Source: Thermodesulfovibrio thiophilus DSM 17215 | GTDB taxonomy: Bacteria; Nitrospirota; Thermodesulfovibrionia; Thermodesulfovibrionales; Thermodesulfovibrionaceae | DNA: 64,000 bases | Reading direction: 5' to 3' | NCBI RefSeq assembly: GCF_000423865.1 | Contig: NZ_AUIU01000019.1 | Span: 1 to 64,000, forward strand | Part shown: positions 55,210-60,527 of the stretch, one piece after another | How positions within the stretch are numbered: position 1 is the stretch's first letter | How the letters are laid out: each line of letters opens with the position of its first letter | Translations under genes and position numbers: made by a program | The notes under the pieces: model-generated | The model's input: only the letters and a program-made list of their open reading frames with translations | Told to the model about the DNA's origin: nothing | Databases searched by the model: none

Positions 55210-55593
55210 TTATATTTCAACGCCTCTTTTCCTTAATTCTTCTAATTTTTTTTCTCGACAGGTTTTACATCTGAATTCAGGTTCAGGATCATTCAATCTG
55301 TCATAGTTTTTTGTTTTAACAACTCTGTAACCTTCACATATCTGTCCGCAATCAACACATCTTACATTTTCTCTAATCTGCCAGAGCGGATAGAATGCTG
55401 GAATTTTAAAATGAGATTTAAATATTGCTTTGTCAATAAACCAAAAAACATTGGCAAGTAAAAACTGATTAAGCAGAAATGCAGGAATAGTGTGAATTCC
55501 CAAATAATCACTCAATAAAAATTGTAGTAATGCTCCAGCTATGCCAGAAAGAACAATCCAGCGTCCAAATACATAAACAAACCATGTTTTCAT
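55210..55593 (-). CDS. Membrane protein with cytoplasmic CxxC zinc-ribbon-like part
   Basis: 127 residues. Two or three helices in the first 60 residues (FGRWIVLSGIAGALLQFLL, FLLNQFLLANVFWFI), then a soluble part with VRCVDCGQICEG and FRCKTCREKK, two CxxC pairs likely to bind zinc. AGGAGG precedes the ATG. The family is unknown to me. Its upstream region is cut close to the IS110 element (about 20 bases), so its promoter may be disturbed. Confidence 0.75.
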   Translation of the reverse strand: MKTWFVYVFGRWIVLSGIAGALLQFLLSDYLGIHTIPAFLLNQFLLANVFWFIDKAIFKSHFKIPAFYPLWQIRENVRCVDCGQICEGYRVVKTKNYDRLNDPEPEFRCKTCREKKLEELRKRGVEI

Positions 55594-55637
55594 AATTTAT
55601 CCTCCTACTAAGAATTTGTGTTATAAAATTTATATAC

Positions 55638-55836
55638 ATGGGTTTTACCCATATAAAACAAAAGAAGACAGGCAGGAGAACTCTATTTACCTGGGTCAGT
55701 GAACCCTTCGAGGAGTTTGTTCCCTGCCTCCCAAAGCCATTATAGGTTGATTGGGTCACTAAACCCTCGTGTCACCTTGGAGGATTGGTCGGGAGGCATC
55801 CCCTGCTCTGTCCAAACAAGTTCTGGAGGTGCTATT
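55638..55836 (+). ncRNA. Candidate IS110 bridge RNA
   Basis: The noncoding left end holds nested stems: ATGGGT-TTT-ACCCAT (55638-55652), GGCAGG with CCTGCC (55671-55728), and two loops with matching form, GGGTCAGTGAACCC (55693) and GGGTCACTAAACCC (55753), exactly 60 bases apart. IS110 elements are known to express such an RNA, with one loop pairing with target and one with donor DNA. The twin loops fit this. Ends and pairing were judged by eye only. Confidence 0.6.
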
Positions 55837-57027
55837 ATGTTTAAAATCTTCATAGGTATTGATATCTCCAAAGACTCTTTCTCCGTTTCTACTGTTGATC
55901 TGAACGGTAATGTCTGTTTTTCCCTGTCTGCCAGTATGGATTCTTCTGGTTTCTCTGAACTCTACAACGCTATCATTTCTTCCTGCAATGTACTCTCCTC
56001 TGTTATAGTTGGTATGGAATCCTCTGGCTGTTACCATATTAATCTGTTCTCCTTCCTTTCCAACAAAGGCATCAAAACTATCATCATTAACCCCTTGCTT
56101 ATTTCCAATTTCTCTAAACTTTCTCTCAGAAAAACCAAAACAGACAGAAAAGATGCCCTTACCATCGCTAAATTCCTCCTTGTCCATAAAAACCAAATTG
56201 AGCAGTTCTCTTCCTCTCAAGATATAATAGAGCTCAGAGATATCGCAAGGGAAAGAGAATATCTGTGTAACCTTATTGCCTCTATAAAAAATGAAATTAA
56301 AAGGCTCCTTCAACTGCTCTTCCCTGAGTTGGAATCCATCTGTAATGTCTTCACCCTTACTATGCTTAACTTCCTCATGAAGTTTCCTTCTGCAAGAACT
56401 ATCAGAGAATCTAAATCCCACCTTATAGCTAAGGCTCTTGAGAGCTCCTGCCAGGGCAGAAAAATCTCTGTCTCTGTAGAAACCATAATCAAAACTGCTC
56501 AGTCTTCTGTGGCTTCTACAAACATAGCTAAAGAGATCATACTCAGAGGAAAAATCTCTACCTTGCTTCATCTTATGGAAAGACTGAATGAAATTACTGA
56601 GTTGCTTTCCTCTTACTGCCAATCTATTATGCTTGAGGACCTTCAAATCCTTACCTCCATTGACGGAATTGATACAACAACTGCTGCCACTTTTTTGGCT
56701 GAAGTGGGGAAAATTGACAACTTTCAGTCTCATAAAAAATTGATTGCCTATGCAGGCATAGACCCTTCTGTGTATCAATCTGGCAAGTTTGAAGGCAAAA
56801 GCAAAATCTCTAAAAGAGGTAACAGACATTTTACAAGAGTGATTTACATCATAACAGTCAATGTTATAAGGGTTAATCATGTCTTCAGAGCTTATTTTCT
56901 CAGAAGAAGAAATGAAGGACTGCCATTCAGAAAGGCAGTTATGACTACCGCACATAAGCTTCTCAGAACCATCTTTGCTATGCTCTCTCATAAATCCTAT
57001 TTCCGTGTTAAGAAACATTCTTTATAG
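55837..57027 (+). CDS. IS110-family transposase (DEDD)
   Basis: 396 residues. N-terminal RuvC-like DEDD domain (IFIGIDISKDSFSVSTVDL with Asp, VGMESSGCYHINLFSFL with Glu, KTDRKDALTIAKFL with Asp pair) and a C-terminal transposase-20 domain (LTSIDGIDTTTAATFLAEVG, KLIAYAGIDPSVYQSGKF) with the conserved Ser region around SKRGNRHFTRV. ATG 55837 has TGGAGG ahead. The frame is intact, so the element may be active. A long minus-strand frame over it is a shadow. Confidence 0.95.
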   Translation: MFKIFIGIDISKDSFSVSTVDLNGNVCFSLSASMDSSGFSELYNAIISSCNVLSSVIVGMESSGCYHINLFSFLSNKGIKTIIINPLLISNFSKLSLRKTKTDRKDALTIAKFLLVHKNQIEQFSSSQDIIELRDIAREREYLCNLIASIKNEIKRLLQLLFPELESICNVFTLTMLNFLMKFPSARTIRESKSHLIAKALESSCQGRKISVSVETIIKTAQSSVASTNIAKEIILRGKISTLLHLMERLNEITELLSSYCQSIMLEDLQILTSIDGIDTTTAATFLAEVGKIDNFQSHKKLIAYAGIDPSVYQSGKFEGKSKISKRGNRHFTRVIYIITVNVIRVNHVFRAYFLRRRNEGLPFRKAVMTTAHKLLRTIFAMLSHKSYFRVKKHSL

Positions 57028-57186
57028 TTGACTCCATGCTAACATGTTAATTTTAAAGGCAATATAATTTTTTAGTGTAACATTTTCCTTAATTTCATCA
57101 GAAAAGGCACAGCAATAAGCTGAAAAATGACTGTAAAATATTATTCAAAATTATATAAAAATAATCCCTATATTAAAAAATGATAA

Positions 57187-59303: not shown

Positions 59304-59739
59304 GGCACTTAAAATCGCAATAAGGTTGATTAGCCAGAGAGATAGAACAGAAGAAGAAATTAAAAAACGTCTTGAAAAAAAAGGTATTTCTGAGAAAGAT
59401 ATAACTGAAACAATCCAATATCTGAAGCAAAAAGGATTTATAGATGACAGGAAATTTGTACATAAAGCAGAGAAAATAGCTGAAGATAGATTTCTTGGGA
59501 AAATTGGGTTGCAAAATTATTTAATGAAAAAAGGAATTCATAAAGAACTTATTGATACTCTTCCTGATATTGATGAAACTAATATAGCGTTGCGACTTAT
59601 TGAACGAAAAAAGTATCTAATAAAAGATGCATCAGTTGAGAAGAAAAAGGCAAAAATAGCAGGTTTTCTCCTAAGAAGAGGATTTTCATGGGATACAGTT
59701 AATAAATGTTTAAAATCATTTGAGAAAGGAGGAAGTTGA
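59284..59739 (+). CDS. recX: RecA regulator RecX
   Basis: 151 residues of three-helix repeats: [40 protein letters not shown] and [16 protein letters not shown]. RecX limits RecA filaments. The start is GTG 59284 with AGGAAG ahead, inside recA (20-base overlap). Its last 21 codons are repeated downstream at 60124 as part of a tandem duplication. Confidence 0.9.
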
Positions 59740-59740
59740 A

Positions 59741-60076
59741 ATGAGATTTTTAATTGTTTTATTCGTTGCAGTTTTTATTTTTGGTTGTGCTTCTTCTCCT
59801 GTAAGATATACCTACGAGGAAATTAAAGACTATCCACCTGAGATTCAGGAAAGAATTACTAAGGGAGAAATATCTCTTGGAATGACAAAAGAACAGGTAA
59901 GATATGCATGGGGACCACCTTCCTCTACAAGAGTTCTCACTCCTGAAAAAGGTAAGCAGAGGGAGGAATGGGTTTATTCTTCTTCTCTTGGAATTTTAAA
60001 ATCAAGGCTTATTTTTGTTAATGGTAAATTAGCATATATCATAAGCAATGAGCAGAAAATTGTCAATGAGGAGTAA
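59741..60076 (+). CDS. BamE/SmpA-like small lipoprotein, copy 1
   Basis: 111 residues from ATG 59741 with AAAGGAGG upstream. Lipoprotein signal (MRFLIVLFVAVFIFGCASS, lipid Cys at about 16), then the hallmark GMTKEQVRYAWGPPSSTR of the SmpA/OmlA/BamE fold (about 47-64) and WVYSSSLGILKSRLIFVNGK. Such proteins sit in the outer membrane, some with the BAM complex. It is the 5' copy of a tandem pair. Confidence 0.85.
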   Translation: MRFLIVLFVAVFIFGCASSPVRYTYEEIKDYPPEIQERITKGEISLGMTKEQVRYAWGPPSSTRVLTPEKGKQREEWVYSSSLGILKSRLIFVNGKLAYIISNEQKIVNEE

Positions 60077-60079
60077 TAG

Positions 60080-60187
60080 ATGCAAAGTTCTGAAATAAGA
60101 CAGCTATTTCTGGACTACTTCAAAAGAGGATTTTTATGGGATACAGTTAATAAATGTTTAAAATCATTTGAGAAAGGAGGAAGTTGA
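60080..60187 (+). CDS. Chimeric mini-ORF: alaS start fused in frame to recX end
   Basis: The first 14 codons of alaS (MQSSEIRQLFLDYF) join, in frame, the last 21 codons of recX ([20 protein letters not shown] plus S), ending at TGA 60187. It was made by the duplication joint and keeps a start codon in the native alaS context. It would make a 35-residue peptide if translated. No function is implied. Confidence 0.6.
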   Translation: MQSSEIRQLFLDYFKRGFLWDTVNKCLKSFEKGGS

Positions 60188-60188
60188 A

Positions 60189-60527
60189 ATGAGATTTTTA
60201 ATTGTTTTATTCGTTGCAGTTTTTATTTTTGGTTGTGCTTCTTCTCCTGTAAGATATACCTCTGAGGAAATTAAAGACTATCCACCTGAGATTCAGGAAA
60301 GAATTGCTAAGGGAGAAATATCTCTTGGAATGACAAAAGAACAGGTAAGATATGCATGGGGACCACCTTCCTCTACAAGAGTTCTCACTCCTGAAAAAGG
60401 TAAGCAGAGGGAGGAATGGGTTTATTCTTCTTCTCTTGGAATTTTAAAATCAAGGCTTATTTTTGTCGATGGTAAACTCACAAACATCATAAGCAGCAAT
60501 GACAGGAAAATTGTCAATGAGGAGTAA
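60189..60527 (+). CDS. BamE/SmpA-like small lipoprotein, copy 2
   Basis: 112 residues, differing from copy 1 at only a few places (Tyr to Ser near 22, Thr to Ala near 36, Asn to Asp, and a changed C-terminus with one added codon). The lipobox, BamE motif and ribosome binding site are all kept. Changes cluster at the C-terminus. Both copies look functional, giving higher dosage. Confidence 0.85.
   Translation: MRFLIVLFVAVFIFGCASSPVRYTSEEIKDYPPEIQERIAKGEISLGMTKEQVRYAWGPPSSTRVLTPEKGKQREEWVYSSSLGILKSRLIFVDGKLTNIISSNDRKIVNEE

What the first reader, a model, noticed from the sequence alone, without database searches (positions are those of the whole stretch)
55638..57027. Intact IS110 element with visible twin loops of a bridge RNA
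The noncoding left end has two loops of the same form (GGGTCAGTGAACCC and GGGTCACTAAACCC), 60 bases apart within nested stems, and the transposase is intact. IS110 elements use an RNA with target and donor loops. The loop differences could show the target and donor recognition of this element, and the organism may be a thermophile, of interest for a heat-stable recombinase.
Basis: partly seen in the sequence, partly recalled or inferred. Interest (0 to 1): 0.55.

Follow-up and report, generated by a model that had tools for sequence, protein, structure and literature searches.

The report
Jumping gene aimed at gene starts
This is an RNA-guided mobile element of a probably heat-loving bacterium; its relatives insert at the ribosome-binding site of other genes, and many keep the opposite strand free of stop codons, which could let the host read through the element into its own gene.

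Summary
The element is real: a 1430-bp IS110-group insertion sequence with an intact transposase and a predicted bridge RNA. The twin loops exist, but they are structural hairpin tips; the guides flank them. The left end lies 36 bp further left than reported. Guides match targets across relatives (RTG-RT 106 of 150 vs 50 expected, 0 of 20000 permutations). Related copies target the Shine-Dalgarno (SD)/start region of a neighbour gene: 39 of 45 left ends abut a start codon (background CCTCC 182 of 716). SD-guided relatives mostly lack antisense stop codons through the transposase (9 of 11, against 0 of 26 with other guides), often through the RNA gene up to the host SD. IS900 is published with the same kind of target and an antisense ORF (hed). 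The antisense amino-acid sequence shows no extra conservation, so I prefer a translation relay that keeps the host gene expressed over a Hed protein; untested. The window copy is partly decayed: RNA indels, guides that no longer match its site, a shortened antisense frame.

The parts
55602..57031 (+). IS110-group element, 1430 bp counted from the left core CT up to the right core
   Evidence: Left end shared by 45 copies, right end by 36 places with an RE-like context; core CTCC at both ends; related genomes L015 and L022 lack it
55601..55605 (+). Left junction CCTCC: last LT base, core CT (55602-55603), first two element bases CC; on the minus strand the SD GGAGG of the neighbouring gene
55210..55593 (-). 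Neighbour gene whose SD is the target site (127 aa, no Pfam match)
55622..55627 (+). Candidate -10 box TATAAA, 18 nt from TTGACT (57028-57033) once the circle is closed
   Evidence: sequence of the joined circle ends; not tested
55632..55816 (+). Predicted bridge RNA (extent approximate)
55638..55652 (+). 5' stem-loop ATGGGTTTTACCCAT
   Evidence: arms change together in relatives
55667..55676 (+). 5' arm of outer stem
   Evidence: helix 1
55802..55812 (+). 3' arm of outer stem
   Evidence: helix 1
55682..55692 (+). Left target guide TCTATTTACCT (one base shorter than in near relatives, CCATTTCACCT)
55693..55706 (+). Hairpin tip of target-binding loop (first twin loop)
   Evidence: helix 3
55707..55715 (+). 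Right target guide TTCGAGGAG
55740..55752 (+). Left donor guide TTATAGGTTGATT, like the RE end TTATAGTTGACT
   Evidence: sequence
55753..55766 (+). Hairpin tip of donor-binding loop (second twin loop)
   Evidence: helix 6
55777..55784 (+). Right donor guide TTGGAGGA, pairs with the left end TCCTCC
   Evidence: sequence; inference
55837..57027 (+). IS110 transposase/recombinase, 396 aa
55759..57018 (-). Antisense ORF in exact codon register with the transposase (419 aa); no TTA/CTA/TCA codon in the transposase except the last codon
57021..57031 (+). Right end / left donor TTTATAGTTGA
57032..57043 (+). Right core CT and right target CCATGCTAAC

Best explanation
An IS110-group element whose recombinase is guided by a left-end bridge RNA. 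In its lineage the target-binding loop is written to recognise a gene's translation start in reverse: LTG reads start codon + spacer + SD half (CCATnnnnCCT) and RTG reads the SD (AAAGGAG). The circle inserts at the core CT inside the SD complement CCTCC. The element brings its own CC, so at the left end the host gene gets a complete GGAGG back; at the right end the original (A)AAGGAG stays on the host's upstream leader, now facing the antisense strand of the element. Most of these elements keep that antisense frame free of stops across the transposase, and many across the RNA gene too, with a stop (TAG or TAA) within 6-18 nt of the left end, just before the rebuilt SD. Most likely function: ribosomes loaded at or near the right-end SD translate antisense through the element, preventing polarity and handing over to the host gene, so that insertion does little harm. 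Shown by computation: RNA fold, guide-target pairing, target preference, link between target type and stop-free antisense frame. Inferred: that the frame is translated and that this is its purpose. The window copy is an old example: transposase intact, but RNA indels, guides that no longer fit its site, and an antisense frame cut at 55759.
For: Fold. Guide-target: RTG-RT 106 of 150 non-core positions in 25 elements, permuted mean 50.1, 0 of 20000; elements without SD guides alone 64 of 96 vs 41.7, 0 of 20000; LTG-LE 235 vs 203.3 +/- 4.6, 0 of 20000. Target: 39 of 45 left ends lie within 2-11 nt of a start codon of an ORF of >=30 codons (34 ATG) against 182 of 716 background CCTCC (124 ATG) and 20 of 36 background CCTCCTTT in 398 kb of G267; the right side begins TT in 27 of 36. 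The base next to CCTCC tracks the guide: A in 11 of 16 G267 sites (guide A), T in 8 of 12 G057 sites (guide T) (A-versus-T test p 0.0015). Antisense: 9 of 11 SD-guided elements have 0-1 antisense stops in the transposase, 0 of 26 others (5-18); the chance of none, given each gene's own A-ending codon bias, is 1.7e-12 for the window and 1.9e-4 to 6.4e-13 for nine other open copies. Frame open >=198 nt upstream of the transposase in 9 of 10 antisense-open relatives against 3 of 24 controls (the window, listed apart, is not open there, so 9 of 11 with it). L244 sits inside the window's own clade on the tree and lacks both the SD guide and the open frame.
Against: L259 and L262 (one clade) carry SD guides but 23 and 15 antisense stops, so the open frame is not required for SD targeting. 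The window's own guides fit its site poorly (RTG-RT 5 of 8; best LTG match not at the site) and its antisense frame stops about 155 nt before the left core. Copies are related: only 3 independent starred contrasts, 2 agreeing, 0 opposing, 1 neutral, not significant (in which L262 was wrongly labelled as not SD-guided). SD-to-ATG spacing varies 2-9 nt, so pairing of the guide with the start codon itself is not proven; G267 sites alone do not exceed CCTCCTTT background (13 of 16 vs 20 of 36, p 0.12). Initiation signals for the antisense frame differ between elements. A weak terminator-like hairpin faces the host gene at 55655-55635, minus strand. In remote GC-rich L065 the open frame is only weakly unexpected (0.013). 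No transcript or ribosome data. L257 is antisense-open although its site shows no start codon on inspection.
Confidence: 0.62

Rival explanations
1. Hed-like protein: the antisense ORF encodes a protein with a function of its own, and the element targets translation signals to get it expressed, as proposed for IS900 by the title of Doran et al. 1997.
For: Same target type and same whole-element antisense ORF are described for IS900. Antisense ORFs of 417-467 codons with an ATG near the right end in several elements; SD-like signals before the ATG in L033/L256 and L038 by eye.
Against: The antisense amino-acid sequence is no better conserved, against codon-shuffle nulls, than in control elements: at sense identity under 0.5 both classes give mostly z 0-3. 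5 invariant columns in 8 antisense proteins against 63 in 11 transposases (other sets of rows). No Pfam or PDB match; mean pLDDT 26 against 79.5 for the transposase, shallow alignments.
Confidence: 0.2
2. Ordinary IS110 element; SD targeting reflects only a guide that happens to match a common motif, and the open antisense frame is codon bias inherited within few lineages.
For: Target loops vary between orthologues in the published work; copies are related.
Against: Codon bias at other codons does not explain absence of TTA/CTA/TCA; phases 1 and 2 hold 7-55 antisense stops in the same open genes; the open frame extends beyond the transposase; L065 (0 stops; start-like site by inspection) and its sister L067 (10 stops) lie outside the main clade.
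Confidence: 0.17

Closest known systems
IS621 (IS110 group) and its bridge RNA (PMC11208160: outline, sections 5, 6, 7, 12 and passages read)
   Same: DEDD/Ser recombinase, left-end ncRNA with 5' stem-loop and two guide loops, LTG/RTG and LDG/RDG logic, promoter rebuilt across the circle junction (here by sequence only)
   Different: Targets SD/start regions, not REP elements; outer stem encloses both loops; long stop-free antisense frame
IS900 of Mycobacterium avium subsp. paratuberculosis (PMC8141618: passages read; Doran et al. 1997: title in reference lists only)
   Same: Target motif CATGNNNNNNTCTCCTT; ORF hed on the strand complementary to the transposase spans the entire element without its own RBS or start
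   Different: Sequence not compared here; no bridge-RNA explanation in the passages read; hed function unknown there, relay reading proposed here
ISEc21/ISEc11 seekRNA elements (PMC11187229: passages read)
   Same: Guide RNA from the noncoding region selects the target; circular intermediate
   Different: Other targets; 'Shine' and 'IS900' do not occur in the text

Membership tests
IS110 family, IS110 group | RuvC-like DEDD domain and C-terminal Transposase_20 domain | tested here: met
   PF01548 8.8e-36, PF02371 5.3e-25; D9, E61, D103, D106, S315, S325 invariant in 11 relatives; which of these are catalytic is recalled
IS110 family, IS110 group | Structured ncRNA in a long left end (IS1111 group: right end) | tested here: met
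   Left end 235 bp, right end 4 bp beyond the stop codon; covariation
IS110 family, IS110 group | Target loop guides match left and right target | tested here: met
   25 and 28 elements; the window copy itself fits poorly
IS110 family, IS110 group | Donor loop guides match element ends | tested here: inconclusive
   LDG resembles the RE end, RDG GGAGGA complements TCCTCC by eye; not tested statistically
IS110 family, IS110 group | Circle intermediate and junction promoter | not testable with these tools
   TTGACT-18-TATAAA arises when the ends are joined
IS900-like (translation-start target with whole-element antisense ORF) | Insertion at an SD with a start codon on the left flank | tested here: met
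   39 of 45 copies, window included
IS900-like (translation-start target with whole-element antisense ORF) | Antisense ORF spanning the entire element | tested here: inconclusive
   Met or nearly so in L231, L233, L256, L033, L038 and, but for one stop, L254; not met in full by the window copy, which covers the transposase only
IS900-like (translation-start target with whole-element antisense ORF) | Expression of the antisense ORF from the host | not testable with these tools
   no expression data

The most novel reading that the evidence does not exclude
A mobile element has evolved RNA guides that copy the cell's translation-start code, together with a stop-free antisense strand, so that ribosomes relay through the inserted element into the host gene: insertion is aimed at, and made silent by, the translation machinery, and IS900's 'hed' is such a relay frame and not a protein gene.
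Probability: 0.35. Interest if true: 0.78.

Novelty: new variant of a known kind. Interest (0 to 1): 0.6.

Why it matters
It joins two results that I found only apart (bridge RNA guides; IS900's translation-start target and hed ORF) and gives a direct test of what hed-type frames are for. It also shows a natural bridge-RNA target loop set to a functional site present at most genes, from a probably thermophilic host, which may interest those who want heat-stable bridge recombinases (a relative with an intact RNA, e.g. L233 or L231, would be a better start than the window copy).

Tried and rejected
Twin tips as guides: rejected, they are paired stems. Energy-based fold alone: weak. Rfam: only a tRNA in the window. 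First genome-contig scan with the single protein found no relative; an alignment query did. Alignment A1 was made with partly wrong coordinates and was not used. A script for the right guide failed and was redone. In the tree L262 was labelled as not SD-guided; it is SD-guided. The Fisher test of 11/2 against 0/27 used counts by eye; the counts to use are 9/11 against 0/26, which leave out partial or broken copies with 0-1 antisense stops (L232, L267, L265/L034, L003, L258, L263, L264, L284). Selection on the antisense protein: no signal. Outward promoter in the left end: no site found on the minus strand there.

Full report
What was checked. The element is single-copy in its 1.87-Mb genome by DNA search; a second, distant IS110 element (36-37% identity) lies at G000:C12. 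A same-genus genome is titled Thermodesulfovibrio sp. (L256 = G010).

Boundaries. In 15 genomes searched with the left-end pattern, 12 had it, 45 places in all; the right-end pattern gave 41 places in 10 of 15 genomes, of which 36 have an RE-like context (5 dropped). They set the left core at 55602-55603 and the right core at 57032-57033. Two same-genus genomes (L015, L022) have the flanks without the element, with some 20-35 bp between the aligned blocks; seven others have a gene of about 530 bp there, so the history of the site is not simple.

RNA. The fold encloses two stem-loops in an outer stem. Pairs covary on 19 and on 45 sequences (the second alignment is fitted to the model and leans towards it, and a few of its rows are weak second-strand matches). 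The model found matches in 29 of 176 genomes of the order.

Guides. RTG complements predicted the right target in relatives: 106 of 150 positions beyond the core, reached by 0 of 20000 permutations, also without any SD-guided element (64 of 96 vs 41.7). LTG resembles its own left end more than others' (of the 32 elements tried, 25 and 28 could be used). Examples by sequence: G150 guide ACAGGAG and both right targets CTCCTGT; G404 guide AGAGGAG and CTCCTCT; the L248 guide predicts CTGTAATG, found CTGTAATG.

Target. 39 of 45 left ends abut a start codon on the opposite strand, 34 of them ATG. Background in 398 kb of one host: 182 of 716 CCTCC, 20 of 36 CCTCCTTT (Fisher 1.3e-16 and 0.0024). Much of the preference thus follows from recognising a full SD. 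That the CAT part of the guide adds to it is suggested by the pooled contrast, and the guide-tracking base next to CCTCC (p 0.0015) shows LTG pairing close to the core, but G267 alone shows no excess over CCTCCTTT (p 0.12). The six left ends without a start by this test are L002, L079, L081, L139, L147, L190.

Antisense frame. In the register that mirrors the transposase codons, antisense stops are the codons TTA, CTA, TCA. SD-guided elements: window 0, L231 0, L233 0, L256 0, L033 0, L038 0, L252 0, L257 0, L254 1, but L259 23 and L262 15. Twenty-six elements with other guides, or placed with them: 5-18 each (codons beyond query position 385 left out). The other antisense phases of the open genes hold 7-55 stops. 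Own codon bias predicts none with probability 1.9e-4 to 6.4e-13 (0.013 in GC-rich L065). The frame goes on through the RNA gene to 6-18 nt from the left end in L231, L233, L256, L033, L038, L254, L265 and the remote L065; L252 stops 45 nt short, L257 and the window do not cross it. In L231, L233, L256 and L033 the closing stop is TAG next to or 2 nt before GGAGG; in L038 and L254 it is TAA (reading of the sequences).

Meaning. The amino-acid sequence of the antisense frame is not conserved beyond what the sense strand imposes and gives no fold (mean pLDDT 26; transposase 79.5; both from shallow alignments). Stop avoidance without sequence conservation is what a translation relay would leave. 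This is inference.

Known work. IS900 is described with target motif CATGNNNNNNTCTCCTT and an ORF hed on the complementary strand that spans the element (PMC8141618, passages); the title of Doran et al. 1997 says that IS900 targets translation initiation signals to facilitate expression of hed (reference lists only). Searches of the paper library for IS110 or IS900 with Shine-Dalgarno, ribosome binding site, start codon, bridge RNA, seekRNA or hed listed no paper that I recognised, from titles and starts of abstracts, as linking bridge RNA guides to this target or as proposing the relay; most subscription papers are not in that library.

The window copy. Its LTG is one base shorter than in near relatives and its donor loop has two extra bases. 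Its guides do not match its flanks beyond CTCC on the right, and its antisense frame ends at 55759. It is best seen as an old insertion with an intact transposase and a drifting RNA.

Noticed in passing
window 59720-60076 and 60168-60527 (+): Two near-identical small lipoprotein-like ORFs (118 and 119 aa) in tandem downstream of a recA-like and a RecX-like ORF; names from reading only.
   Followed up: no
between window 55594 and 57187, compared with L011, L013, L017, L018, L019, L021, L030: Seven same-genus genomes carry a gene of about 530 bp at this spot that the window genome, L015 and L022 lack.
   Followed up: partly
L038 (G000:C12 about 76880-78330): A second SD-inserted IS110 element in the window's own genome, 36% identical, antisense frame open; its RTG AAAGGAG and right target CTCCTTT agree.
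   Followed up: partly
L257: In Acetomicrobium hydrogeniformans the antisense frame of the element continues in frame into an ORF that reads like another IS110-type transposase (594 open codons).
   Followed up: no
L066, L068, L069, L070: Remote elements (25-28% identity) that look IS1111-like also have no antisense stops in the transposase, while L071, L072, L074 have 9-19; their targets were not worked out.
   Followed up: no
L254: A record titled Candidatus Thermoplasmatota archaeon carries an element close to those of Desulfofervidaceae (L252, L267); possible misbinning or transfer.
   Followed up: no
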